In this document: one piece after another, positions 48,491-64,000 of the stretch
How positions within the stretch are numbered: position 1 is the first letter of the stretch
Layout: each line of letters starts with the position of its first letter
NCBI RefSeq assembly: GCF_000010525.1
Contig: NC_009937.1
Span: 2,919,501 to 2,983,500 of the forward strand
Direction: 5' to 3'
DNA: 64,000 nucleotides
Origin: Azorhizobium caulinodans ORS 571
Lineage (GTDB): Bacteria > Pseudomonadota > Alphaproteobacteria > Rhizobiales > Xanthobacteraceae
The notes under the pieces: generated by a model
What the model was told of the DNA's origin: nothing
Database searches by the model: none
The model's input: the letters and a program-made list of their open reading frames with translations, nothing else
Translations under genes and position numbers: made by a program

Positions 48491-49930
48491 ATGAACGGGC
48501 CGAGCACCACGGCAGCCTTCAGCGAAGCCGCCACACCGCTGCATTTCCTAAGCATCACCGAGGCCTCGCGGCTCATCGGTTCCGGCCGGCTGTCGCCGGT
48601 CACGCTCGTGGAGGCCTTCCTCGCCCGCATCGAGGCCATCGATGCGCGGCTCAAGAGCTACATCACGATCACCCGAGCTCGCGCGCTGGCAGCTGCAAAA
48701 ATCGCCGAGGCAGAGATTGCCGCCGGCCGCTGGAAGGGGCCGCTGCACGGCATCCCCTTCGCGGTGAAGGACAATTACCACGTGGCCGGCCTGCCCACCA
48801 CTGGCGGCTCGCGCCTCATGCTCCATCACGTGGCCGATGCAACCTCCACGGCCGTGGCGCGGCTGGAAGCGGCGGGCGCGATCCTGCTCGGCAAGCTCAA
48901 CACCTGGGAATATGGCACCGGCAATGGCGGCGTCTACCATGACCTGCCCTTCGAGGTGGCACGCAATCCCTGGGATCTCGCCTGCTTCACCGGCGGCTCC
49001 TCCACCGGTGCGGGTGCTGCCGTTGCGGCAGGCACCGCCATGTTCGCCCTCGGCTCGGATACCGGCGGCTCCATCCGCCTGCCAGCCGCAGCCTGCGGCC
49101 TCCAGGGCTTCAAGGCCACCTTCGGTCGCGTCAGCCGCGCCCACTGCCTGCCCAATTGCTGGACGCTCGACCACACCGGCCCGCTCACCTGGACGGTGGA
49201 GGACAATGCCATCGTCATGCAGGCCATCTCCGGCTTCGATCCGGGGGATCCCTCCGCCGCCGACGTGCCCGTGCCGGATTATCGCAAGAACCTGCATGCG
49301 GGCGTGAAGGGGCTGGTGATCGGCTTCGTCCGCGACCTCGGCCCGGAAGGGGCAGCTCTTGATGCCGCCAATGCGGCAGCGCTGCAGGAGGCGGCCCGCG
49401 TACTGGAGGCACAGGGCGCCATCATCCGCGAGGTCACCCTGCCGGCCCCTCTGGCGCAGTACCGGGCGGTGACAAAGGTGATCAACTGGTCGGAATCCTA
49501 TTCCATCCATGAGCAGGATTTTCTGGAGCGTAGCGCCCTCATGGGGCAGGCCCTGCGTGAGAAGATGATGTCGGGCTTCACGGTCCGCGCCGCCGATTAT
49601 CTCGCCGCCACCCGCCTGCGCCGCTCCCTCGTGGACACCACCGACGCGCTGGTGCGCTCCTGCGACGCCCTTCTGATCGCAGGCGCCTTCCATGTGGCCC
49701 CGCGCTTTGATGCGCCGGACACCATCACCCCCTTCACCGCGGACACGGCCACCACGGTGTTCAACGTGACCGGCCATCCAGCCCTGTCGATCTGCACCGG
49801 CTTTGACGCCAGTGGCCTGCCTCTGAATGCCCAGATCGTCGGCCGCTTCTTCGACGAAGAGACCGTGCTGCGCGTGGCCCAGTCCTACGAGGCCGCCACC
49901 CCGTGGCGCGCCCGTCGGCCGACGCTGTGA
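48491..49930 (+). CDS. Amidase-signature hydrolase 3
   Basis: A 479-residue enzyme with triad K93 (FAVKDNYHV), cis-serine S170 in the TGGSSTGAG cluster and nucleophile S194 (SDTGGSIRLPA). It is closer to the first two amidases than to the next two. A GAGAGGTG site precedes the ATG. It follows the AbrB-type membrane gene and is followed by the second small AtzG/GatC-like gene. Confidence 0.9.
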   Translation: MNGPSTTAAFSEAATPLHFLSITEASRLIGSGRLSPVTLVEAFLARIEAIDARLKSYITITRARALAAAKIAEAEIAAGRWKGPLHGIPFAVKDNYHVAGLPTTGGSRLMLHHVADATSTAVARLEAAGAILLGKLNTWEYGTGNGGVYHDLPFEVARNPWDLACFTGGSSTGAGAAVAAGTAMFALGSDTGGSIRLPAAACGLQGFKATFGRVSRAHCLPNCWTLDHTGPLTWTVEDNAIVMQAISGFDPGDPSAADVPVPDYRKNLHAGVKGLVIGFVRDLGPEGAALDAANAAALQEAARVLEAQGAIIREVTLPAPLAQYRAVTKVINWSESYSIHEQDFLERSALMGQALREKMMSGFTVRAADYLAATRLRRSLVDTTDALVRSCDALLIAGAFHVAPRFDAPDTITPFTADTATTVFNVTGHPALSICTGFDASGLPLNAQIVGRFFDEETVLRVAQSYEAATPWRARRPTL

Positions 49931-49945
49931 ACCCGGGAGCGACCC

Positions 49946-50155
49946 ATGTCAGACCTCCAGACGCCGACCCTTGAAGGAATCCGCCTCTATGCCGCGCGAC
50001 ACGGGCTGAAGGATCTGCCGGATGACCAGTTCGCGCGCCTTGCCGAGCTCGCACAGACCGTGCGCGCGGCGGGCCTCGCCCTGCCGCGCCAGCCCTCGAA
50101 GGAAGACGAACCCGCCCATCTCTTCACCATGACGGCCCCGCGAGGCACCAAATGA
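49946..50155 (+). CDS. Small AtzG/GatC-like amidase partner (second copy)
   Basis: A 69-residue protein starting MSDLQTPTLEGIRLYAARHG with a helical middle (DDQFARLAELAQTVRAAGLA) and the tail KEDEPAHLFTM. The DEPAH tail and size match the first small protein at 38157, although overall identity is low. Its stop overlaps the next amidase start by four bases (ATGA), so equimolar synthesis with that amidase is likely. A GGGAG site precedes the ATG. Confidence 0.72.
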   Translation: MSDLQTPTLEGIRLYAARHGLKDLPDDQFARLAELAQTVRAAGLALPRQPSKEDEPAHLFTMTAPRGTK

Positions 50156-51480
50156 GCACGACCGCCCCCTGCTTCCTCACCGCCGCGCAGGCCGCCGCCC
50201 GGATCAAGGCCGGCACGCTGACCAGCGAGGCTTTGATCCGCTCCTGCCTCGAGCGCATCGGGGCGCGCGACCCTGCCGTAAAGGCATGGCTCCATGTGGA
50301 CCCGGACCTGGCCATCCGGCAGGCGCGCGAGCTGGACAAGCGCCCGCCCGCGGGGCCGCTCCACGGCATCCCCTTCGGCGTGAAGGACATCATGGACACG
50401 GCGGATATGCCGACCACGTACAATTCCCAGGAATGGCAGGACCACCGGCCGACGCGGGATGCGGCCTGCGTAAACATTGTCCGCCAGGCCGGCGCCGTGA
50501 TCCTCGGCAAGACCGACACGGTGGAATTCGCCTTCAACTCCCGCAAGGCCGCGAGCCGCAACCCCTACAATCTCGCCCACACGCCCGGCGGCTCCTCCTC
50601 CGGCTCCGGAGCGGCGGTGGGCGACTATCAGGTGCAGTGCGCCTTCGGCACCCAGACCGCCGGCTCCCACATTCGCCCCGCCTCCTTCAACGGCATCTAT
50701 GCCATCAAGCCCAGTTGGGGCACGGTGAGCCGCGAAGGCGTGCACATGATATCCGCCATCCTCGACACGGTGGGCTGGTATGGCCGCAGCGTGGACGATC
50801 TGATCCTCGGCGCGCAGGCCTTCCGCCTGCCGGGCATGGAGAGCCTCGCCGCCCGGGGCGTGAAGGGACTGAAGATCGGCTATTGCGAGACGCCCTATTG
50901 GTCGCGCGCCGAGACCGGCGCCCGCAAAGCCATGGCCGTGGCCGTCGAGCGGCTGCAGCGGGCGGGCGTCATCGTCGAGGAAATCGCGCTCCCGGCGCAT
51001 TTCGCGGACATAGCCGAAGCCCACACGATGATCATGTTCGGAGACGGGCGCGTCGCGCTCTATGACGAATATCTGCGACAGGGCGGTCGTCTCCACCCCG
51101 AACTGAAGCTCACCGTCGAGAACGGGCGCGGCGTGACGCCCGAGACGCTCGTCGCGGCCTATGACCTCGCCGACACCTGCCGCATGGAATTCGATGCCAT
51201 CGCAGCGGGTTATGACGCAGTGCTCGCGCCGGCTGCCACGGGCGAGGCCCCGAAGGGTCTCCACACGGTGGGCGACTGGATCTTCAACGGCCTGTGGACC
51301 CTGCTGCACACGCCCTGCGTGGCCATCCCCTCAGTGCTGGGCGACATCGGCCTGCCCGTGGGCGTCCAGTTGGTCGGTGGCCGTCTCTCCGACGCCCGCC
51401 TCCTGGCCGTCGCGCAGTCTCTTCAGCCGGTGCTGGACGATTTCGCCGACACCCGCGCCACCCTGCTCGCCGCCGCCTGA
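50152..51480 (+). CDS. Amidase-signature hydrolase 4 (coupled to the second small partner)
   Basis: A 442-residue enzyme with K78 (FGVKDIMDT), cis-serine S148 in the PGGSSSGSG cluster and nucleophile S172. The nucleophile motif is TQTAGSHIRPA instead of the usual DTGGS, placing it with amidase 5 in a different branch from amidases 1-3. Translational coupling to the small upstream gene suggests a heteromeric GatC/AtzG-like complex. Substrate unknown. Confidence 0.88.
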   Translation: MSTTAPCFLTAAQAAARIKAGTLTSEALIRSCLERIGARDPAVKAWLHVDPDLAIRQARELDKRPPAGPLHGIPFGVKDIMDTADMPTTYNSQEWQDHRPTRDAACVNIVRQAGAVILGKTDTVEFAFNSRKAASRNPYNLAHTPGGSSSGSGAAVGDYQVQCAFGTQTAGSHIRPASFNGIYAIKPSWGTVSREGVHMISAILDTVGWYGRSVDDLILGAQAFRLPGMESLAARGVKGLKIGYCETPYWSRAETGARKAMAVAVERLQRAGVIVEEIALPAHFADIAEAHTMIMFGDGRVALYDEYLRQGGRLHPELKLTVENGRGVTPETLVAAYDLADTCRMEFDAIAAGYDAVLAPAATGEAPKGLHTVGDWIFNGLWTLLHTPCVAIPSVLGDIGLPVGVQLVGGRLSDARLLAVAQSLQPVLDDFADTRATLLAAA

Positions 51481-51510
51481 ACATTCGCGCACATCGGAAA
51501 GGGAATACCC

Positions 51511-52821
51511 ATGGAACCCTGTTTCCTGACCGCCGCCGAGGCGGCCTCTGCCATACGGGCCGGCACACTCACCAGCGAAGCGCTGCTCCGCTCCTGCATC
51601 GCCCGCATCGAGGCGCGCGACCCGGTCGTGAAGGCCTGGCTCTATCTGGATAAAGCCAAGGCGATCGCCACCGCCCGGGAACTGGACAAGCGCCCGCCCA
51701 TGGGGCCTCTGCACGGCCTGCCCATCGGCGTGAAGGACATGATCGACACCGCCGACATGCCCACCACCTACAACTCCCCGGTGTTCCAGGACTATCGTCC
51801 GGCCCGCGACGCCGCCTGCGTGGCGGTGGCGCGCTATTCCGGCGCCGTGATCCTCGGCAAGACAGACACGGTGGAATTCGCCGCGGCCGGCCGCCGCGCC
51901 GCCACCCGCAACCCGAAGAACCCCGCCCACACGCCGGGCGGCTCGTCCTCCGGCTCGGGCGCCGCGGTGGGCGACCGGCAGGTGCAGCTGGCCTTCGGCA
52001 CCCAGACCGGCGGCTCGCACATCCGCCCGGCATCCTTCAATGGCATCTATGGGATGAAGCCAACCTGGGGCACCGTCAGCCGGGAGGGCGCCAAGCAGTA
52101 TGCCAACATGCTGGACACCATCGGCTGGTATGGCCGCTCGGTCGCAGATCTGGCCCTTGTGGGCTCCGCCTTCCGCCTGCACGACGTGGGCGAGATCGGC
52201 ATTCCCAGCGTCGCCGGGCTGAGGGTTGCCATCTGCCGGACGCCGTTCTGGGATCAGATCGAACCGGCCGGCGCCGCAGCTTTGGAGATCGCCAGCAAAC
52301 GGCTTGAGAAGGCCGGAGCGAAGCTCATCGATCTCACCCTCCCGCCCGCCTTCGACGGCATGTTCGAAGCCCAGAACACCATCATGATGGCGGAGGGGCG
52401 CGCCTCGTTCCTGGACGTCGCGTTGGAGTTCGGCGAACGGCTGCACGTGGACTTTCATGACCGGGTGAACAATAAACTCGAGATAACGCCCGAGAACCTG
52501 CTCGCGGCCTACAATCTGGCCGCGGGATGCCGCAGGGCCTTCGAGGCGCTCTATGCCGATTTCGACGTGGTGCTCACCCCCGCCGCCCCGGGAGAGGCGC
52601 CGGAAGGCACGTACAACACCGGCAATCACATCTTTAACGCGATGTGGACGCTCCTTCACGTGCCCTGCCTCGGGATCCCCTGCACCACGGGCCCCACGGG
52701 CCTGCCGGTGGGCGTGCAGATCGTCGCCCCACGCTATGGTGACGCCCGGCTGCTGGCGCTGGGAGAAGCGATGGCGCCCATCATCGATGAGGAAACCGCG
52801 CTCTATGCGGTGGCGGCCTGA
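51511..52821 (+). CDS. Amidase-signature hydrolase 5
   Basis: A 436-residue tandem paralogue of amidase 4 with K75 (IGVKDMIDT), S145 in the GGSSSGSG cluster and nucleophile S169 (TQTGGSHIRPA). Shared stretches such as AGTLTSEALLRSC and TADMPTTYNS show a local duplication. It begins 30 bases after amidase 4. It is the last intact gene of the island; a decayed monooxygenase gene follows. Confidence 0.9.
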   Translation: MEPCFLTAAEAASAIRAGTLTSEALLRSCIARIEARDPVVKAWLYLDKAKAIATARELDKRPPMGPLHGLPIGVKDMIDTADMPTTYNSPVFQDYRPARDAACVAVARYSGAVILGKTDTVEFAAAGRRAATRNPKNPAHTPGGSSSGSGAAVGDRQVQLAFGTQTGGSHIRPASFNGIYGMKPTWGTVSREGAKQYANMLDTIGWYGRSVADLALVGSAFRLHDVGEIGIPSVAGLRVAICRTPFWDQIEPAGAAALEIASKRLEKAGAKLIDLTLPPAFDGMFEAQNTIMMAEGRASFLDVALEFGERLHVDFHDRVNNKLEITPENLLAAYNLAAGCRRAFEALYADFDVVLTPAAPGEAPEGTYNTGNHIFNAMWTLLHVPCLGIPCTTGPTGLPVGVQIVAPRYGDARLLALGEAMAPIIDEETALYAVAA

Positions 52822-53792: not shown

Positions 53793-56700
53793 ATGTCGGC
53801 GCGGATTGCGGAAACCATGTTTCGTTCGCAGGGTGAGTCGTTCCGGCAGCCCCTGCTCCGCAAGCGCCTCTTGCGCTCCTCAGCGCTGATTCCCTTCCTC
53901 GCCCTTGTCCTTCTGGCGCCGCCCGCATTCGCAGGTGGCGGCGGCAACGGCGGAGGCAACAGCGGATCCCCCGGGGGACTCGACAATTATGATGCCGGTG
54001 GTACCGGCGGAACAGGCACCGCTGCGACGTCCATCGGTAGCGGTGGCGGTGCTGGCGGTGGTGGCGCTGGCCTCACCGGGGGCGCTGGCGGCGCCGCCAA
54101 CGGCACGAACGGTGCCGGTGGCGCCGGCGGCACTCACGCTTATGTGGGCAGCGGTAGTGGTGTCACGAACAGCCTGACCGGTGGCAACGGCGCGGCGGGC
54201 TCATCCGGCAGCAACAATGGCGGTGGCGGCGGTGCCGGCGGCACGGCGGTGGTCATCACCGGCAATAGCTCAGGCGTGCTCAACTGGTCTTCGGCCACTT
54301 TCACCCTCACCGGCGGTGTGGGTGGCGCCGGCGGCTCCGGCTCCTCGGCGCAGAATGGCGGCGAAGGCGGGACGGGTGGCGACGGCCTCTACTTTGGCCA
54401 GGATATCACCTTCACCTCTTCAAACAGTCTGCTCATCACCGGCGGACAGGGCGGCGCGGGCAGCAATGGCAGGGCTGGCGGCAACGGCATCGAGTTCGCA
54501 ACCGGCACGAATAGTCGCGCAACCATCAATGGCCAGGTGCAGGGCGGAGCTGGCGGCACCTCAACCAAGACGAACAGCAATACCGGCAATGGCGGTAACG
54601 GCATTCTAGCGGACACGCTGGACCTGACGCTGAATGCAATGGTGAGCGGTGGCGCCGGGTCATCTGGTGCGGGGGACGTCGGAGGCGGCGCCGGGGGTGA
54701 TGGTATTTCTGCCCTCGCATTCACCGGCATGATCAATGCGGCGGTCACGGGCGGCACCGGCGGCAGCACCGGCGCCAGCTCGTCGGCGTCGGCTGGCAGC
54801 GGCGGCTATGGCCTGAGGTTGAATGGAGCCAGTACCGTTACTGTCAATGCCAATGTGACCGGCGGTAATTCCGGGGCCGCCAGCGTCAGCGGCGGCTACG
54901 GCGGCATTGGTATCTACGCCACTCCGTCTTTGTCGCTGACGATCCAGAACAACGCCATCGTTCGGGGCGGCGATGCTGGCGCCGTCACGGGCAGCGCCTA
55001 CACGACGGGTGGCTCCGGTATCTACCTGGATTATGCCACCTCGGACATCACGCTGCTGTCCGGACAGGTTATCGGCGGCAATGCATCGGGCAGCGACAGT
55101 GCTGCGACGGGCGGCTACGGGATCGAGAGCCACGGTGCGCCGTCCGTCACCATCACCCTGGGCGCCGGGAGCACGATTTCCGGTGGCCTCGGTGGCAACG
55201 GAATGTCGGACCGGTCGGCGCGGGCCAACGCGATCTTCATTGAGAATTTCGATGGTACGCCCGCCACCAACACGCTGGTACTCCTCGGAAGCGGGGGCAC
55301 GTCGGGCTCGACCTATGCGACCATCATCGGAGACGTGGTAGCGACCCCGGCGGATAGCACCACCAACAAGATGACGTTCGGCGGCGCTGGCGGCGTGTTC
55401 GATGTCGGCCAGATCGATCTGGGCGCCGGCTCCTCGGCCGCCACGATCTTCCGTGGTTTCACCGAATTTACCGTTGACACCACCGGCACCTGGATCATGA
55501 CCGGCGCGTCGACCACTGGCGGGACCGCCTTGCCCGCGACCTGGACCGTCGCCGCCGGCACCCTTCAGCTCGGCAATGCGAGCACAGCCGGAACCCTGCT
55601 CGGCTCGGTGGGTGTCAACAGCGGCGGCACTCTGGCCAATGGCGGGCGAACGGCGACCGTCACCAACGGGGTCACCGTGACGAGCGGTGCCACTCTCTCC
55701 CTGACAGCGGTGAGTGGCGGGCCTGCTCTCAGCATCACCAGCGGCAATCTTAACCTCAATACCGGCAGCACGCTCACCATCACCCTCGGTGCGCCGACGA
55801 CCCAGTCCCTGATATCCGTGGCGGCAGGGTCCGCTGTGCTTGGCAGCACCCTGAACATCACCGACGCCGGCACCATGGCGGCGGGGAGCTATACACTCCT
55901 CAGCTATTCGGGCACGCTTTCGGGTCCCGGGCTGACGCTGGGCACCACGCCGTCGGCGTTCCAGTTCAGCGTCGATACGTCCAGCACCGCAGGTCAGGTG
56001 CTGTTGCTGGTCACCGGTGGTGCGCCGACCGTCATTTACTGGAACGGCAGCACCACTGGCGGCAGCTCGGGCCCGGTCGCGGGCGGAACCGGCACCTGGA
56101 CGGCCGCTTCGAGCGGCGTAACCAACTGGACCAACTCTGCCGGCACCTCCCGCGTGGTGTCGGACCCGTCCCTGACCGCCATATTTGCGGGCACCGCCGG
56201 GACGGTGACGGTAAGCGCCGCATCCGGCGCCGTTTCCGCCAAGGGGCTGGAGTTCGACACGTCGGGCTACACGATCACCGGCAGCGAGCTGACGCTGGTG
56301 AACGGCTCCACCATGCCGCAGGTGAATGTTGTCGGGAGCAGCGCTTCGGCCACCATTTCCGCGCCGCTGGCGGGCAGCAACGGCCTGGAAAAGATCGGCG
56401 ACGGTGCACTGAGCCTTTACGGTGCCAATACCTATACGGGCAACACGACCATTACGGCCGGTACGCTCACGGTCGGTGGGGCCGGCTCTCTCGGCAGCGG
56501 CACCTATGCCGGCAACATCTCCATCGCTTCCGGCACCAGCTTCAACTACGCATCCTCGGCGGCGCAGACCCTGTCGGGCAACATTTCCGGCGACGGCGAC
56601 CTGACCGTTGGCGGGACCGGATCGCTGACCCTCTCCGGCAATAACACCTACACGGGCGGGACCACCAACCTCAACGGCGCCCTGGTCGCTTCCGGCGGGT

Positions 56701-59700
56701 CCGCCATTGGTGATACCAGCGCAGTGCTCATGGGCAATTCCGCGAGCCTCACGATCTCGGCGGCGGAAACCATCGGCTCGCTGGCAGGTGCCGGAACGGT
56801 GGCGATTTCTGGCCAGCTGACGCTGGGCGGCATAAACACATCCACCACCTATTCCGGCGTGATCTCCGGTGCCGGCGGCCTGACCAAGACCGGCACCGGC
56901 ACGCTGACGCTCGGCGGCGCGAACACGTTCACGGGGGCGCTCAACCTTGAGAGCGGCACCCTGCTGGTGAACACGACGGGATCGATCGCCTCGGCTTCCT
57001 CCGTCAATCTCAGCGCCGGCACGCAACTGACCCTCAGTGGCGGCGGCAGCAAGAGCATCAAGATGCTCAATGACGGGGTCGGAGGGACCGGCACCGCATA
57101 TCTGCAGTTGGGCACGACCGCACTCACCATCGGTCTTGGGGACGGTAGCGGCACATTCTCCGGTGCGATCACCGGAAGCGGGAGCCTCACCAAGGTAGGA
57201 ACCGGCACGCTCACGCTGGCTGGGGCCAACACCTTCACCGGCGGCCTTCAGATTTCCGGCGGCACGGTGACCGTGACCGGTGGATCTGCCATCGCCAACA
57301 CCGCCAACGTGACCGTGGGGACCGGTGCCACCCTTACGCTGCAGGCCTCCGAGACCATCGGCGCGCTGAGCGGCGCTGGCAGCGTGACCGCGACGGGCGG
57401 CAGCCGTGTCCTCACCGCCGGCGGGAACAACACCAGCACCACCTTCTCCGGCACTCTGTCTGCCTCCGGAGGAAACAGCATCGGCCTGGTCAAGACCGGG
57501 ACGGGCACCTTTACCCTGACGGGCGCCAGCAGCTACGCCGGCGGCACCACCATTTCCGCCGGCACGCTCCAGATCGGCGACGGGGGTACCACCGGTTCGA
57601 TCACGGGCAACATCACCAACAATGCCGCGCTGATCTTCAATCGCTCCGACGACCTCACCTATTCGGGGGGCATTTCCGGCACGGGCACCCTGCAGAAGGC
57701 AGGGAGCGGCAAGCTCACGCTGACCGGCAACAACTCAATGACCGGGCTCACCACCGTTTCAGCCGGCACGCTGGCGCTCACGGGCGGGATGGCCGGCAGT
57801 GTCACCGTCAATTCCGGCGCCACCTTCGCCAGCACAAGCACCGGCCTCATCGGCGGCACGCTCACCATCGAGAACGGCGCCACGCTGACGGCCACGAGCG
57901 GCAACCTGTTTACCGTCGCGGGGCTGTCGCTCGCGTCCGGCTCAATCATCAATTTAACGGCCAACACTCCCACGACCACTGCGGCGGTGAGCGTCACCGG
58001 CGGCCTCGTGCTCGGGGGCACGCTGAACGTCAGCGCAGGCACCGGCTTTGGCAGCGGCACCTATCGCGTCATCACCTATGGCGGCGCCCTCACCAATAAC
58101 GGCCTGGCGCTGGGCAGCACCTCCTCGGACAGCCTGTACTATCTCAACACTGCCACCATCGGCCAGGTGAACCTGCTCGTTGCGGTCGGGCAGTGGTGGA
58201 ACGGGGCGGTGACGACCGCCGGCGGTTCCTCCGTGGCGGGCGGGAACGGGACGTGGGATGTGGCAGCCGCCACCACCAACTGGACCAACACGACCGGCTC
58301 CAGCGCCGACGCGTGGGGGCAGGGCGGACTGGCGCTGTTCGGCGGCGCCGCGGGCACCGTGACCGTGAGCGGCCCCACCGCCCCGCAAGTGGCGGGCCTG
58401 CGGTTCCTCACCGATGGCTACACCGTCACCGGCGGCCAGATTGGCCTTTCTGCCTTCGCCACGGGAGCGACACCCGCCATTCTGGTGGACACCGGCCTGT
58501 CGGCCACGATCGCCTCACAGCTCACCGGCAGTGACGGGCTTGAAAAGACCGGCGCCGGCACGCTCATCCTGACCGGCACATCGAGCATCACGGGCGGCAC
58601 GACCATCACCGCCGGCACGCTTCAGATCGGCAACGGCGGCAGTACCGGCTCGGTGGCCGGCAACATCGTCAACAATGCTGCGCTGGTCTTCAACCTGTCC
58701 AGCGATACCACCTATGCGGGCAGCATTTCCGGTGCCGGCACGTTGGAGAAGACAGGCACCGGCACCCTGACCCTCTCCGGCTCCAACGCGACGACCGGGC
58801 TGACGACCGTCTCGGCTGGCACGCTCGCCCTCACGGGAAGCCTCGCGGGGAGTGTCAACGTTGCATCCGGCGCCACGCTGCGCGGCAGCACCACCGGGAT
58901 TGTCGGCGGAACCGTCACCATTGCGAACGGCGGCACGCTGGCCGTGGCGAGCGGCAACCTGTTTACCGCCGGCGCTCTGAGCCTCGGCTCCGCCTCGACG
59001 CTCGCGTTTACCGCCGGCACGCCCACCACCACGGCAGCGGTGGGACTGGGCGGCAGCCTGACGCTGGATGGCACGCTCAACATCACGGCGGGGAACGGCT
59101 TTTCCACCGGCACTTATCGCCTGATCAATTATGGCAGCAGCTTCACCGATAACGGCCTTGCCATCGGAACGGCGCCCACCCACAGCCTCTACAGGATTGA
59201 CACCGCCACCCTTGGGCAGGTGAACCTCGTGGTCGCGGCCGGTCAGTGGTGGAACGGCACCACGACCACCGCCGGGGGCTCCGCCGTGGTCGGCGGCAGT
59301 GGCACGTGGAACGTCGCCGCAGGCACCACCAACTGGACCAACACGGATGGCTCCAGCGCGGATGCCTGGGGCCAAGGTGGCCTCGCGGTGTTCGGCGGCA
59401 CCGCTGGCACCGTCACCCTGAGCGGAGGCACCTCGCCCCAGGTGGCGGGCCTCGAATTCATGGTGTCCGGTTATACCGTCACGGGCGGATCGATCGGTCT
59501 TTCCGCCTTCTCGGCCGGCACCAAGCCCGCGATCTATGTGGAGAGCGGTGCCTCGGCCACCATCGCATCGAACCTCACCGGCACGGACGGACTGTCCAAG
59601 ACCGGCGCCGGCACCCTGATCTTCTCGGGGGTGGGCACCTATACGGGCGGGACGAGCATCGCGGCGGGTACGCTCCAGATCGGCAATGGCGGCAGCACCG

Positions 59701-62700
59701 GCTCGGTGGCCGGCAACATCGCGGATGACGGCGCCCTCGTCTTCAACCGTTCCAACGACCTGACCTTCGCAGCCGTGGTGTCCGGCAGCGGCTCTGTCAC
59801 CCAGGCCGGCAGCGGCGGGCTGATCCTGACGGGCGCGAACACCTATACGGGCGGAACCACCGTCTCTTCCGGCACGCTGCAGATCGGCGCTGGCGGCACG
59901 ACCGGCTCCATCGTCGGCGCCATCGCCAATAGTGGAACGGTGGCCTTCAACCGCTCCGACGATATCGTCGCCAGCGGCGCGATCACGGGCAGCGGCAGCC
60001 TGGTGCAGATGGGCTCCGGCAAGCTCACGCTCACCGGATCGAACAGCGCGGCGGGCGGGACGTCGGTTGCCGGCGGAACGCTGGAAATCCTTAGTGGTGC
60101 GACGCTGGCGAGCAACGTCGTGGTCGGGTCCGGCGCCACGCTGCAGGGCGAGACCGGCGGCACCGCCGGCGCCGTGCTGAACGGCGCGGTAACCGTGCAG
60201 AATGGAGGCACGATCCGTGCCGCGGCCACCGGCACGCCCGGTCTCTATGGCCTCTCCATGAGCGGGCTTACGCTGTCGAATAGCGCCAATATCAATGTGA
60301 ATCTCGGTGCCAACACGGGCGTCGCGGTGTTGCAGGCCACCAACCTCACGCTGGATGGCGTGCTGAACATCAGCAATACCGGCAGCATGGCGCTCGGCGT
60401 GTATCGCCTGATCGACTACACGACCTTGGTCGCGGACAACGGGCTCGCTATCGGCACCGTGCCGTCGCAATTTGCTTATAGCGTGGACGTGGTCCCGAAC
60501 CACGTGAACCTGTCCGTCCTCAACGGCAGCCTGCGGTACTGGAACGGCACCACCACAACGCCGGACGGGACGGTCCATGGCGGCAGCGGCACCTGGTCGT
60601 CCAGTGTCTCTCCGGCCAATTGGCTGACGGCTGGGCTCAACCAGTCGGTTCCGTGGAACAGCGAGTTCGCGGTATTCTCCGGCACCCCCGGAAATGTGAG
60701 CGTCTCGGGAACGGTGTCCACCACGGGCATGCAGTTCATGGTGGATGGTTATTCGCTGGGGGCGGGCACCATTGTGCTTGCCGCCACCAGCGGCCAGACG
60801 CAGGTCCGGGTGGGCGACGGCACCGGGCTCGGCGCCTCCTATGTGGCGACCCTAGGCTCGGTGATCGACGGCACCACGGGTCTTGAGAAGACGGACCTCG
60901 GCACCCTCATCCTGACCGGGACCAATACCTATACCGGCAACACCACCGTCTCGGCCGGCACGCTGCAGATTGGCAATGGCGGAAGCGCCGGCAGCATTCT
61001 CGGCGACGTCGCGGTCGCGTCCGGCGCGACGCTCGCCTTCAACCGCAGCGATGCGGTGAGTTTCGGTGGCGTGATCTCTGGGAATGGCGGCTTCACCCAG
61101 ACCGGATCGGGCACTCTCACCCTCACGGGGAACAACACCTATACGGGCACCACGACCATCTCCGGCGGCACGCTGCAGGTGGGCGATGGCGGCACCTCCG
61201 GCACGCTGGCCGGCACGGTGGTGAACAATGCCGCGCTCGTCTTCAACCGCTCCGACGCGACGAGCTTCGCTGGCGCCATCTCCGGCACCGGCACGCTGAC
61301 CAAGCAGGGCGCGGGCGCACTCACCCTGTCGGGCAGCAACAGCTTCACGGGCGCCACCACCGTTGCGGGCGGCACGCTGGCGATCAGCGGCGGCGCTTCG
61401 CTGGCGGACGGCGCGCGCCTCACCGTGGCCTCGGCCGCCACGCTCTCGCTCCTGGACGCGAACGAGACCGTGGGATCGCTCGCCGGCGCGGGCACCGTCG
61501 CGCTGGGCAGCCAGACCCTGACGGCCGGTGGCGACAATACCAGCTCCACCTTCACCGGCACCCTCAGCGGCACCGGCGGCCTCACCAAGGTCGGGACGGG
61601 CACGCTGACGCTCGGCGGCACCAACAGCTATAGCGGCCAGACGACGGTTTCTGCCGGGACACTGGTTGCGCAGGGCAACGCCGCGCTTGCGGACGGCACC
61701 GCCGTCTCGGTGGCGAGCGGGGCTACCCTCGACCTGCAGATGACCGGGACGAAGATCCTCGGCGGGTTGAGCGGCGCGGGCAATGTGCAGCTGAATGCCA
61801 CCACGCTGTCCGTCGGCGGGGACAACAGCTCCACCACCTATTCGGGCGTGCTGAGCGGCACGGGCGGGCTGACGAAGACCGGCACGGGCACACTGACCCT
61901 GAGTGGCACGAACACCTTCACGGGCACCGCGCAGATCAGCTCCGGCGCCCTGGCGCTGATGGGAAGCGTCGGCGGCGATGTCAGCGTGGCGGCCGCTGCC
62001 ACCCTGTCGGGCACCGGGAGCGTGAGCGGGACGGTCAATGTCCTCTCCGGCGGCACGCTATCGGGCACGCAGCCCACGGGCCTGACCATGGGTGGGCTCA
62101 CCCTGGCGTCGGGTGCGAACATGAACGTGACGCTGGGTGCGCCTTCGGGGAGCGGCCTGTTCACGGTGAACGGCAACGTGACGCTGGACGGCACGCTGAA
62201 CGTGACCCAGGCGCCGGGCTTCGGCATCGGCATCTATCGCCTCGCGAGCTATACCGGCACCCTCACGGACAACGGCCTCGATGTGGGCGCCCTCTCCGGC
62301 GGTCTGCTCGGCGGCGTGCAGACAGCGGTGGCGGGGCAGGTGAACCTGCTGGTGGAATCGCCCAACAATGCCCTGCTGTTCTGGAACGGCGCGAACACCA
62401 CGCCGACCGGGAGCATCGTGGGCGGCGCGGGCACGTGGACAGCGTCGAACCAGACCAACTGGATCAACGGTTCCGGCACCATCGCGCAGAACTGGAACGG
62501 TAGTTTTGCGGTGTTCCAGGGCACGGCGGGCGCCGTGGACGTGGACGCGAGCAACGGCCCGGTGTCGGCCTCGGGGATGCAGTTCGCGACCAGCGGCTAT
62601 ATCGTCTCGGGAGCCCCCATCGTGCTCACCGGCAGCGGCCCGGCGACGCTGCGGGTCGGCGACGGCACCGGCGCGGGTGCGGCGATGACCGCCACCATCG

Positions 62701-64000
62701 CCAGCGCGCTGACCGGTACCACCGGGATCGTCAAGACGGATCTTGGCACCCTCATCCTGTCCGGCGCGAATACCTACACGGGTGGGACCACCATCTCCGC
62801 CGGCACGCTGCAGATCGGCGCCGGCGCCACTACGGGCTCCATCCTGGGCGATGTGGTGAACAATGCCGCGCTCGTCTTCAACCGCTCGGACGCCACGAGC
62901 TTCGCGGGCGCGATCTCCGGCACCGGCACGCTGACCAAGCTGGGCAGCGGTGAACTGAGCCTCACGGGCACCAACACCTATTCCGGCGGCACCACGATCG
63001 GCGCGGGCACGCTCCGCGCTTCCTCGGCGCAGGCGCTCGGCTCCGGTGGGTTGACCATCAACCGGGGCGGCACCCTGCGGGGCAGCAGCAGCTTCACCTT
63101 TGGCAACAATGTGGTTCTCTCCAATGCGGGAACCGCGACGACCAACGCCGCCATCTCGGTGGATGCGGGCCAGACGGTGAATGTCTCCGGCGTAATCTCC
63201 GGCAGCGGCGCCCTCGACAAGACCGGCGGCGGCACGCTCGTCCTCACCGGCACGAACACCTATACGGGCACGACCACCATCTCCGCCGGCACGCTGCAGA
63301 TCGGCAATGGCGGCACGACCGGCTCGCTGCTGAGCAACATCGTCAACAATGCGAGCCTGGTGTTCAACCGGGCCGACACCTACACCTTCACCGGCTCCAT
63401 CACCGGCACGGGTAGCGTCACCTTCCTCGGGGGCGGCACCGTGCAGTTCTCCGCGCCCTATACCGGCGCGGTGGGCGTGGACGACAGCACGGTGAGGCTG
63501 GTCGCGGGGACGACCACCAGTTCGCCCTTCACGGTCAATAACGGCGGCGTTCTCGGTGGCACCGCGACCATCGGCGGCCTCACGGTCAATTCCGGCGGCA
63601 CGGCGTCGCCGGGCTATTCGCCCGGAACGCTTACCGTCAACGGCGCGGTGACGTTCAATGCCGGCTCCGTCTATGCGGTGGACCTGACGCCGGAAGGCGC
63701 CCACGACCTGATCATCGCCTCCGGCAATGTGACCCTGTCTTCCGGGGCCACCGTGGCGGTGAACGCAACCGCAGGCGTTTATCCGCGGTCCGGCCAGGTG
63801 ACGATTATCACCACCTCCGGCACGGTGATTGGCACGTTCGGCGCCGTGACGTCGAACTATGCCTTCCTGACGCCGTCGCTCACCTACGACCAGCAGAATG
63901 TCTATCTGAACTACGTTTACAACGGCATCCGGTTCTCCGATTACGCGCGGACGCCGAACCAGGCCAATGTGGCCGTGGCGGCGCAGGCGCTGGGGGATGC
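53793..64000 (+). CDS. Giant autotransporter adhesin-like protein (5' part, runs off the window)
   Basis: One open frame runs from ATG 53793 to the window edge, at least 3,402 codons. A basic N-terminus and hydrophobic core (ALIPFLALVLLAPPAFA, cleavage likely after residue 47) form an export signal. A glycine-rich region (about 48-480) follows. Then come many autotransporter-associated beta-strand repeats of the type GTGTLTLTGxNTYTGGTT followed by GTLQIGNGG, alternating with five WNG/GTW/NWTN modules. The last residues (YARTPNQANVAVAAQAL) are the usual junction to the outer-membrane barrel, which must lie beyond the window. It probably makes a long surface beta-helix for adhesion. The ATG follows GGGTGGGGATT. 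Confidence 0.9.
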   Translation, partial: MSARIAETMFRSQGESFRQPLLRKRLLRSSALIPFLALVLLAPPAFAGGGGNGGGNSGSPGGLDNYDAGGTGGTGTAATSIGSGGGAGGGGAGLTGGAGGAANGTNGAGGAGGTHAYVGSGSGVTNSLTGGNGAAGSSGSNNGGGGGAGGTAVVITGNSSGVLNWSSATFTLTGGVGGAGGSGSSAQNGGEGGTGGDGLYFGQDITFTSSNSLLITGGQGGAGSNGRAGGNGIEFATGTNSRATINGQVQGGAGGTSTKTNSNTGNGGNGILADTLDLTLNAMVSGGAGSSGAGDVGGGAGGDGISALAFTGMINAAVTGGTGGSTGASSSASAGSGGYGLRLNGASTVTVNANVTGGNSGAASVSGGYGGIGIYATPSLSLTIQNNAIVRGGDAGAVTGSAYTTGGSGIYLDYATSDITLLSGQVIGGNASGSDSAATGGYGIESHGAPSVTITLGAGSTISGGLGGNGMSDRSARANAIFIENFDGTPATNTLVLLGSGGTSGSTYATIIGDVVATPADSTTNKMTFGGAGGVFDVGQIDLGAGSSAATIFRGFTEFTVDTTGTWIMTGASTTGGTALPATWTVAAGTLQLGNASTAGTLLGSVGVNSGGTLANGGRTATVTNGVTVTSGATLSLTAVSGGPALSITSGNLNLNTGSTLTITLGAPTTQSLISVAAGSAVLGSTLNITDAGTMAAGSYTLLSYSGTLSGPGLTLGTTPSAFQFSVDTSSTAGQVLLLVTGGAPTVIYWNGSTTGGSSGPVAGGTGTWTAASSGVTNWTNSAGTSRVVSDPSLTAIFAGTAGTVTVSAASGAVSAKGLEFDTSGYTITGSELTLVNGSTMPQVNVVGSSASATISAPLAGSNGLEKIGDGALSLYGANTYTGNTTITAGTLTVGGAGSLGSGTYAGNISIASGTSFNYASSAAQTLSGNISGDGDLTVGGTGSLTLSGNNTYTGGTTNLNGALVASGGSAIGDTSAVLMGNSASLTISAAETIGSLAGAGTVAISGQLTLGGINTSTTYSGVISGAGGLTKTGTGTLTLGGANTFTGALNLESGTLLVNTTGSIASASSVNLSAGTQLTLSGGGSKSIKMLNDGVGGTGTAYLQLGTTALTIGLGDGSGTFSGAITGSGSLTKVGTGTLTLAGANTFTGGLQISGGTVTVTGGSAIANTANVTVGTGATLTLQASETIGALSGAGSVTATGGSRVLTAGGNNTSTTFSGTLSASGGNSIGLVKTGTGTFTLTGASSYAGGTTISAGTLQIGDGGTTGSITGNITNNAALIFNRSDDLTYSGGISGTGTLQKAGSGKLTLTGNNSMTGLTTVSAGTLALTGGMAGSVTVNSGATFASTSTGLIGGTLTIENGATLTATSGNLFTVAGLSLASGSIINLTANTPTTTAAVSVTGGLVLGGTLNVSAGTGFGSGTYRVITYGGALTNNGLALGSTSSDSLYYLNTATIGQVNLLVAVGQWWNGAVTTAGGSSVAGGNGTWDVAAATTNWTNTTGSSADAWGQGGLALFGGAAGTVTVSGPTAPQVAGLRFLTDGYTVTGGQIGLSAFATGATPAILVDTGLSATIASQLTGSDGLEKTGAGTLILTGTSSITGGTTITAGTLQIGNGGSTGSVAGNIVNNAALVFNLSSDTTYAGSISGAGTLEKTGTGTLTLSGSNATTGLTTVSAGTLALTGSLAGSVNVASGATLRGSTTGIVGGTVTIANGGTLAVASGNLFTAGALSLGSASTLAFTAGTPTTTAAVGLGGSLTLDGTLNITAGNGFSTGTYRLINYGSSFTDNGLAIGTAPTHSLYRIDTATLGQVNLVVAAGQWWNGTTTTAGGSAVVGGSGTWNVAAGTTNWTNTDGSSADAWGQGGLAVFGGTAGTVTLSGGTSPQVAGLEFMVSGYTVTGGSIGLSAFSAGTKPAIYVESGASATIASNLTGTDGLSKTGAGTLIFSGVGTYTGGTSIAAGTLQIGNGGSTGSVAGNIADDGALVFNRSNDLTFAAVVSGSGSVTQAGSGGLILTGANTYTGGTTVSSGTLQIGAGGTTGSIVGAIANSGTVAFNRSDDIVASGAITGSGSLVQMGSGKLTLTGSNSAAGGTSVAGGTLEILSGATLASNVVVGSGATLQGETGGTAGAVLNGAVTVQNGGTIRAAATGTPGLYGLSMSGLTLSNSANINVNLGANTGVAVLQATNLTLDGVLNISNTGSMALGVYRLIDYTTLVADNGLAIGTVPSQFAYSVDVVPNHVNLSVLNGSLRYWNGTTTTPDGTVHGGSGTWSSSVSPANWLTAGLNQSVPWNSEFAVFSGTPGNVSVSGTVSTTGMQFMVDGYSLGAGTIVLAATSGQTQVRVGDGTGLGASYVATLGSVIDGTTGLEKTDLGTLILTGTNTYTGNTTVSAGTLQIGNGGSAGSILGDVAVASGATLAFNRSDAVSFGGVISGNGGFTQTGSGTLTLTGNNTYTGTTTISGGTLQVGDGGTSGTLAGTVVNNAALVFNRSDATSFAGAISGTGTLTKQGAGALTLSGSNSFTGATTVAGGTLAISGGASLADGARLTVASAATLSLLDANETVGSLAGAGTVALGSQTLTAGGDNTSSTFTGTLSGTGGLTKVGTGTLTLGGTNSYSGQTTVSAGTLVAQGNAALADGTAVSVASGATLDLQMTGTKILGGLSGAGNVQLNATTLSVGGDNSSTTYSGVLSGTGGLTKTGTGTLTLSGTNTFTGTAQISSGALALMGSVGGDVSVAAAATLSGTGSVSGTVNVLSGGTLSGTQPTGLTMGGLTLASGANMNVTLGAPSGSGLFTVNGNVTLDGTLNVTQAPGFGIGIYRLASYTGTLTDNGLDVGALSGGLLGGVQTAVAGQVNLLVESPNNALLFWNGANTTPTGSIVGGAGTWTASNQTNWINGSGTIAQNWNGSFAVFQGTAGAVDVDASNGPVSASGMQFATSGYIVSGAPIVLTGSGPATLRVGDGTGAGAAMTATIASALTGTTGIVKTDLGTLILSGANTYTGGTTISAGTLQIGAGATTGSILGDVVNNAALVFNRSDATSFAGAISGTGTLTKLGSGELSLTGTNTYSGGTTIGAGTLRASSAQALGSGGLTINRGGTLRGSSSFTFGNNVVLSNAGTATTNAAISVDAGQTVNVSGVISGSGALDKTGGGTLVLTGTNTYTGTTTISAGTLQIGNGGTTGSLLSNIVNNASLVFNRADTYTFTGSITGTGSVTFLGGGTVQFSAPYTGAVGVDDSTVRLVAGTTTSSPFTVNNGGVLGGTATIGGLTVNSGGTASPGYSPGTLTVNGAVTFNAGSVYAVDLTPEGAHDLIIASGNVTLSSGATVAVNATAGVYPRSGQVTIITTSGTVIGTFGAVTSNYAFLTPSLTYDQQNVYLNYVYNGIRFSDYARTPNQANVAVAAQALGD
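57588..59693 (+). repeat. Diverged 1,053-bp tandem duplication inside the autotransporter
   Basis: Two successive blocks of 351 codons align end to end with constant offset 1,053. Matching landmarks are TTVSAGTLALTG (about 57750 and 58803), NGLALG/NGLAIG (about 58098 and 59151) and QWWNG (about 58190 and 59243). The copies have diverged noticeably at nucleotide level. Outer boundaries are approximate. Confidence 0.75.

What the first reader, a model, noticed from the sequence alone, without database searches (positions are those of the whole stretch)
53793..64000. Giant autotransporter built from five WNG/GTW/NWTN supermodules
The passenger is not a uniform repeat. Five times (about 56.03, 58.19, 59.24, 60.54 and 62.38 kb) a segment ending a sub-domain (TLDGTLNI, YRLI-Y, DNGLAIG, QVNLLV) is followed by YWNG, GTW, NWTN, AVF-GTAGTV and GYTVTG, and then by beta-strand repeats. 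The supermodules may be rigid beta-helix segments capped by a folded domain of unknown role, like beads on a rod.
Basis: seen in the sequence. Interest (0 to 1): 0.55.

Follow-up and report, generated by a model that had tools for sequence, protein, structure and literature searches.

The report
Chain of whole autotransporter stalks
A giant bacterial surface protein turns out to be several complete autotransporter stalks strung end to end, each closed by an end piece that ordinary autotransporters carry only once, next to the outer membrane.

Summary
The five YWNG/GTW/NWTN sites are real, at 56037, 58194, 59247, 60537 and 62379. The gene is a 3766-residue autotransporter whose barrel lies just past the window. 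The genome length equals that of Azorhizobium caulinodans ORS571.

WNG is not a bead. It is the start of a beta-helix, and the segment before it (TLDGTLN...YRLI-Y...QVNLLV, "CAP") is the end of the previous helix. CAP folds like solved autochaperone regions and is homologous to the segment before the barrel. One unit matches whole passenger stalks, and most autotransporter alignments stop within four residues of the next WNG.

In 50 open frames not used to build the profiles, 90 of 100 WNG copies follow a CAP, nine lie at the N-terminus and one is cut by a locus edge. Three small autotransporters are exactly signal-WNG-repeats-CAP-barrel, i.e. one unit.

So the passenger is a chain of six stalks with five internal autochaperone-like ends. 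That each end nucleates folding of its own stalk is inferred. Neither WNG nor CAP has a Pfam model.

The parts
53793..53933 (+). likely start (ATG, codon 10 of the TTG-opened frame) and signal region ending ...PPAFA|GGGG
   Evidence: read by eye; no signal-peptide predictor was run
53934..56036 (+). stalk S0: Gly-rich N-terminal region (GGxGG repeats) then CAP1
   Evidence: translation; no Pfam match for residues 1-757; CAP1 by profile
55650..56036 (+). CAP1, end of stalk S0
   Evidence: CAP profile
56037..58193 (+). stalk S1: WNG1 (56037-56372), PATR repeats, CAP2
57840..58193 (+). CAP2; residues 1-135 of model 1 (which starts at 57783) match solved autochaperone-containing ends
58194..59246 (+). 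stalk S2: WNG2 (58194-58526), PATR repeats, CAP3; modelled whole
58893..59246 (+). CAP3; model 2 residues 222-353 match IcsA autochaperone region 3ml3
59247..60536 (+). stalk S3: WNG3 (59247-59579), PATR repeats, CAP4 (60168-60536)
60537..62378 (+). stalk S4: WNG4 (60537-60869), PATR repeats, CAP5 (62013-62378)
62379..63908 (+). stalk S5: WNG5 (62379-62714), PATR repeats, terminal autochaperone-like end (63558-63908)
   Evidence: terminal end weak by the CAP profile alone (i-E 0.11), clear by profile-profile comparison of the terminal set
63909..64000 (+). linker to the barrel; PF03797 barrel follows outside the window (window-equivalent 64248-65003)

Best explanation
The protein is a classical (type Va) autotransporter whose passenger is a chain of six complete beta-helical stalks. 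Each of the last five has the parts of a simple autotransporter passenger: an N-terminal start (WNG, probably an aromatic N-cap plus first rungs), a run of PATR rungs, and a C-terminal autochaperone-type end (CAP). [Shown by sequence, profile and predicted-structure results.] Inferred mechanism: the chain leaves the barrel C-terminus first, each CAP folds as it emerges and seeds the rungs N-terminal to it, the WNG start stops that helix, and the next CAP begins again, so that a passenger of about 3,300 residues folds stalk by stalk and does not depend on one membrane-near nucleus. The product would be a long, jointed surface fibre, most likely an adhesin. [Folding relay, joints and adhesion are inferred.]
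For: Five CAP-WNG seams in the gene. CAP in model 1 (residues 1-135) aligns to pertactin 426-569 (2iou, Z 13.0, rmsd 2.5, 128 aligned) and to the IcsA autochaperone region 3ml3 586-740 (Z 12.5, rmsd 2.8, 127 aligned); the published refined autochaperones there are D444-L556 (pertactin) and D606-L720 (IcsA) (PMC5767081). In model 2 (WNG2 to WNG3) one unit aligns to whole or terminal stalks: 7jvi 24-352 (Z 21.0, rmsd 3.7), Ssp 127-352 to 363-639 (Z 17.7, rmsd 2.4), pertactin 1-354 to 103-538 (Z 17.0, rmsd 5.1), IcsA 118-353 to 435-740, EspP 141-351 to 739-995; WNG3 begins at model residue 355. Internal CAPs vs terminal pre-barrel segments: hhalign prob 95.7, E 9.8e-9 (41 vs 34 rows) and prob 98.9, E 1.3e-17, 114 columns (79 vs 34 rows). 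Controls: WNG vs terminal set prob 2.3; CAP vs mid-stalk PATR prob 14; PATR matches the terminal set just N-terminal of where CAP does. Seam rule in 50 frames not used for the profiles: 90 of 100 WNG after a CAP, 9 N-terminal, 1 at a cut edge; CAPs: 90 of 94 before WNG, 3 before a barrel, 1 other. Random placement gives 3.7 of 77, at most 11 in 2000 trials (observed 72 of 77). Three 1030-1047-aa autotransporters are signal-WNG-PATR2-CAP-barrel. Five-unit order shared with a gene of another genus.
Against: No internal CAP scores as Pfam AC_1: 0 of 41 (E up to 1) and 0 of 79 (E up to 0.1); the best AC_1 match at a CAP in this genome is E 0.44. The CAP profile sees the gene's own terminal end only weakly (i-E 0.11). 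The structures are predictions; no coordinates or PAE were seen, so joints, bends and contacts across the seam are unknown. Foldseek alone gave no PDB match under E 0.001 for model 1; the matches come from VIA-align on Foldseek's list, where beta-solenoids of many kinds score Z 8-13. One CAP (in L079) is not followed by a WNG. Published work cited here puts the autochaperone essentially at the C-terminal end. Nothing here tests secretion, folding order or adhesion.
Confidence: 0.6

Rival explanations
1. Same architecture, no folding relay: the internal CAP-WNG seams are only helix ends. They close the exposed hydrophobic ends of each stalk and act as hinges or spacers; folding still starts once, next to the barrel. 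The units multiplied by recombination because repeats recombine.
For: Every beta-helix needs ends, so the CAP fold does not prove a chaperone role; recent copy-number amplification is seen in other genes (98.9-100% identical blocks in L079 and 98.8% in L095; single-gene unit clusters for L026 and L062).
Against: In the window gene, its G008 counterpart and two Pseudomonas genes, units keep their order and mostly resemble their positional partners more than their neighbours, so the chain is maintained. CAP is specifically of the autochaperone-containing type.
Confidence: 0.35
2. One reading: WNG segments are separate folded domains of unknown role, like beads, inserted between helix segments.
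For: The first ~45 residues of WNG are loop-rich and aromatic (W, GTW, NW) and differ from PATR rungs; WNG has no Pfam family (no credible match in 42 members).
Against: WNG aligns as the beginning of beta-helices; it is followed directly by PATR rungs and occurs right after signal regions in nine frames.
Confidence: 0.04
3. Repeat-array artefact: low-complexity beta repeats produce spurious 'modules', or the array is misassembled.
For: The protein is rich in G, T and S repeats, and the whole-protein Pfam scan even missed the barrel found with the C-terminus alone.
Against: Leave-one-out E 6.9e-22 or better; WNG modules 31-76% identical to module 2, not copies; same seam in Pseudomonas and other alphaproteobacteria.
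Confidence: 0.01

Closest known systems
Classical type Va autotransporters with PATR/beta-helical passengers (PF12951, PF03797), e.g. pertactin, IcsA, Ssp
   Same: Signal region, PATR rungs, autochaperone-type end, linker, PF03797 barrel; one unit superposes on such passengers.
   Different: They have one stalk and one autochaperone next to the barrel; this one has six stalks in series and five more autochaperone-like ends inside the passenger.
Autochaperone domain (AC; Pfam PF18883 AC_1; Rojas-Lopez et al., PMC5767081)
   Same: CAP has the fold of the AC-containing region of IcsA and pertactin and is a homologue of the pre-barrel segment of the same proteins.
   Different: Internal and repeated; not recognised by the AC_1 model. 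That survey found AC in 708 of 1523 autotransporters, essentially towards the C-terminus about 100 aa before the translocator.
Start of the beta-helix in serine protease autotransporters (Pic, PDB 9z7b)
   Same: The junction profile aligns WNG+PATR with Pic 274-459 (E 0.0021).
   Different: With WNG alone the match is not significant (E 1.2); a lead only.
AoaA of Azorhizobium caulinodans (Suzuki et al. 2008, cited in PMC9289746)
   Same: An autotransporter of the same species, needed for sustained nitrogen fixation in stem nodules (title and passages seen).
   Different: It could not be told which of the 14 PF03797 loci of the genome is AoaA; the original paper was not seen.
Giant adhesin BmaC of Brucella suis (PMC8111173)
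   Same: A 340-kDa type Va autotransporter carrying PATRs, shown to be an adhesin (abstract and passages).
   Different: Not tested here for internal CAP-WNG seams.

Membership tests
Type Va autotransporter | C-terminal PF03797 beta-barrel in the same frame | tested here: met
   PF03797 E 7.7e-66 on the last 557 residues; genome search 1.4e-66
Type Va autotransporter | Beta-helical passenger with PATR repeats | tested here: met
   20 PATR stretches; two models, pLDDT 91.8 and 91.7, aligned to beta-helices
Type Va autotransporter | Sec signal peptide | tested here: inconclusive
   hydrophobic stretch and AFA|G seen by eye; no predictor run
Type Va autotransporter | Passenger reaches the cell surface | not testable with these tools
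   needs experiment
Autochaperone domain (AC), internal CAPs | AC fold | tested here: met
   3ml3 Z 12.5, rmsd 2.8, 127 aligned, in both models; 2iou Z 13.0, rmsd 2.5, 128 aligned; predicted models only
Autochaperone domain (AC), internal CAPs | Homology to the pre-barrel segment | tested here: met
   hhalign E 9.8e-9 and 1.3e-17, controls prob 2.3 and 14
Autochaperone domain (AC), internal CAPs | Match to Pfam AC_1 over its cut-off | tested here: not met
   0 of 41 and 0 of 79 internal CAPs; own genome best E 0.345, none over the cut-off. AC_1 does match 8 of 10 terminal segments scanned, 7 of them over the cut-off
Autochaperone domain (AC), internal CAPs | Location about 100 aa before the barrel | tested here: not met
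   five copies are internal; only the sixth, terminal end is 92 aa before the barrel
Autochaperone domain (AC), internal CAPs | Promotes folding of the passenger in cis or trans | not testable with these tools
   needs experiment; hence 'AC-type end', not filed as AC
SPATE beta-helix start (for WNG) | Significant sequence match of WNG alone | tested here: inconclusive
   junction profile E 0.0021, WNG alone E 1.2

The most novel reading that the evidence does not exclude
Some autotransporters solve the problem of exporting passengers of thousands of residues by carrying a folding nucleus for every stalk: a serial, internally repeated autochaperone that folds and pulls the chain out one stalk at a time, making length modular and evolvable by adding whole passengers (up to 14 WNG starts are seen in one open frame, L079).
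Probability: 0.35. Interest if true: 0.75.

Novelty: new variant of a known kind. Interest (0 to 1): 0.56.

Why it matters
How autotransporters drive and fold long passengers without ATP is an open question, and the autochaperone is usually treated as one C-terminal element (PMC5767081 sections 11-12; PMC8151025 passage). A natural protein with six tandem autochaperone-like ends, and relatives with one unit only, makes the idea testable: remove or add units and ask whether folding and export become stalk-autonomous. It also gives two conserved, unnamed building blocks (WNG start, CAP end) seen in alphaproteobacteria and in more distant Pseudomonadota, including Pseudomonas (27 of 398 sampled genomes carry WNG), useful for annotating giant autotransporters now labelled only as beta-strand repeat proteins.

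Tried and rejected
The link between WNG and the SPATE helix start was kept only as a lead: significant with the long profile, not with WNG alone. Whether WNG occurs outside autotransporters: none found. Of the 47 WNG frames fetched up to that were not cut or broken (52 less L026, L036, L058 and both L080 frames), 37 had a barrel by a local profile and 9 of the other 10 by Pfam; the last (L075) stayed unresolved. I recall similar WNG-like segments in PATR proteins of Verrucomicrobiota and Planctomycetota without a barrel, but no call tested that: genome searches were centred on Pseudomonadota and the single genome-contig scan returned only Pseudomonadota. The plasmid search gave nine records; eight of the nine are named as autotransporter or beta-strand-repeat proteins under the match, one has no listed gene. 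The BFVD search with model 2 gave only loose beta-helix matches. Foldseek with model 1 had no PDB hit under E 0.001.

My first barrel profile used the wrong strand for 5 of 8 training sequences; it was rebuilt and the counts use the rebuilt one. The architectures printed, the gap values and the pre-barrel segments still rest on barrel positions from the first version. In the seam counts L058 was dropped as a duplicate of L026; L062 and L063 were shown apart. L055-L105 hold some related genes (paralogues L055 and L056; L057, L092, L105 from the genome of L026; L062 and L063 from the species of L028; near-identical L099 and L100), so the 50 frames are not 50 independent events. The tree used 58 seams from 19 loci that I chose, not all. 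Genome-search match counts per genome are lower bounds, since at most 11 candidates a genome were scored. Papers: search listings; passages for PMC9289746, PMC2443382, PMC8151025, PMC8111173; sections 11 and 12 plus passages for PMC5767081; outline and abstract for PMC5895577. That tandem or internal autochaperones are unreported rests only in this open-access library.

Full report
What was checked. The window is part of one closed 5,369,772-base contig, the length published for Azorhizobium caulinodans ORS571 (PMC2443382, passage), a stem-nodulating symbiont. A PF03797 barrel ends it and 20 PATR stretches fill it. The five WNG sites are at 56037, 58194, 59247, 60537 and 62379. The modules align with 23 invariant columns and each is found from the other four at E 6.9e-22 or better. 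The segment before each is also conserved. WNG and CAP have no Pfam family.

Where else. In the own genome WNG occurs ten times in three autotransporters, five, three and two copies. A profile of the preceding segment (CAP) finds exactly those ten places plus two weak ones at the ends of other autotransporters: 603361-603615 (E 6.5e-5), 415 nt before a barrel, and 4188031-4188234 (E 0.037), 454 nt before another. WNG is in 5 of 41 near relatives, the own genome included, and in 23 of 398 genomes of the phylum with the five-row profile, or 27 of 398 with a 42-row profile. Named carriers include Ancylobacter, Azorhizobium oxalatiphilum, eight Pseudomonas and Sandarakinorhabdus (11 loci), and a Methylobacterium currus plasmid.

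A seam rule. With profiles for WNG, CAP, PATR and barrel, architecture was read in the fetched loci. In the window gene 5 of 5 WNG follow a CAP. In the eleven loci that trained the profiles 37 of 37 do. In 50 frames not used for training, found through WNG alone, 90 of 100 follow a CAP ending at most 40 aa before; nine are within 100 residues of the N-terminus, just after a signal-like stretch; one is cut by the locus edge. Of 94 CAPs there, 90 precede a WNG, three precede a barrel, one (L079) does neither. Placing the CAPs at random gives 3.7 of 77 such adjacencies, never more than 11 in 2000 trials (on the 77 copies held then, of which 72 were adjacent). Three small autotransporters of one related genus (1030-1047 aa; L096-L098) consist of signal region, WNG, two PATRs, CAP and barrel: a supermodule is, part for part, a whole simple autotransporter passenger. 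This was looked for after the helix-start reading had been written down (note).

Structure. Model 1 (residues 1340-1700, 40-row alignment; pLDDT 91.8, pTM 0.85) spans CAP2-WNG2-PATR. The autochaperones were defined as D444-L556 in pertactin and D606-L720 in IcsA. Model 2 (residues 1474-1941, 25 rows; pLDDT 91.7, pTM 0.86) runs from WNG2 through CAP3 to WNG3. One unit of it aligns to whole or terminal stalks of pertactin, Ssp, IcsA, EspP, EspC and Hbp, and those alignments end at model residues 351-354 (fusolisin ends at 328), WNG3 starting at 355. So the seam behaves as an end and a new start. The first ~45 WNG residues are irregular and rich in conserved tryptophans, which suggests an N-terminal cap (inference). 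Coordinates and PAE were not available, so the angle between stalks is unknown.

Homology of internal and terminal ends. hhalign of 41 internal CAPs with 34 pre-barrel segments gives prob 95.7, E 9.8e-9; 79 CAPs from the other loci give prob 98.9, E 1.3e-17 over 114 columns. WNG against the pre-barrel set gives prob 2.3 and CAP against mid-stalk repeats prob 14, while mid-stalk repeats match the pre-barrel set just before the CAP match. The order rungs-then-CAP is thus the same inside and at the end. A CAP profile also reaches the end of the solved Ssp passenger (8e7f 472-550, E 1.5e-4). Against this, Pfam's AC_1 recognises no internal CAP, though it recognises 8 of 10 terminal ends scanned. 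The internal copies are therefore called autochaperone-type ends, not members of AC_1.

History. In a tree of 58 seams from 19 chosen loci, window seams 4 and 5 pair with seams 4 and 5 of a five-seam gene of another genus (G008; 99/91 and 92/86), seam 1 with seam 1 more weakly (93/22), and seams 2 and 3 join seams 2 and 3 (100/99). Two Pseudomonas genes pair 4 of 4 by position. Other genes show recent amplification: all units of L026 (99/95) and of the long L062 gene (99/93) group by gene, and near-identical blocks occur in L079 and L095. So chains can grow quickly, yet some have been kept in order across genera.

How it may work. [quoted passage not shown] With a nucleus-like end every 351-719 residues, each stalk could fold as soon as it is out. 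This relay is inference; simple end-capping with hinges is the main rival. Adhesion is the likely function by analogy with other PATR giants such as BmaC and is untested. AoaA of this species may or may not be this gene.

Verdict.

Noticed in passing
L079 (unnamed alphaproteobacterial genome), minus-strand frame cut at its N-terminal side: 14 WNG starts in one open frame; blocks 1167 aa apart are 98.9-100% identical over 1140 nt, i.e. very recent amplification of several stalks.
   Followed up: partly
L095:477-20885 (Methylobacterium currus plasmid): A plasmid-borne giant autotransporter (about 6.8 thousand residues) with six seams, a 1217-aa block repeated at 98.8% DNA identity, and a WNG 68.5% identical to the window's module 3.
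   Followed up: partly
53934-55450: Gly-rich GGxGG repeat region at the N-terminus with no Pfam match; role unknown.
   Followed up: no
48491-52818: Three amidase genes (PF01425) side by side upstream of the autotransporter.
   Followed up: no
L083, L072, L099: Large autotransporter-like frames with a single WNG right after the signal region and no further WNG or CAP by these profiles.
   Followed up: no
whole genome: 14 PF03797 loci in the genome, three of them with WNG-CAP seams (frames of 3774, 5587 and 2470 aa).
   Followed up: partly
P0002: Pfam scan of the whole 3766-aa protein misses the barrel that the C-terminal 557 residues alone match at E 7.7e-66: long repetitive proteins can lose their barrel in annotation.
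   Followed up: no
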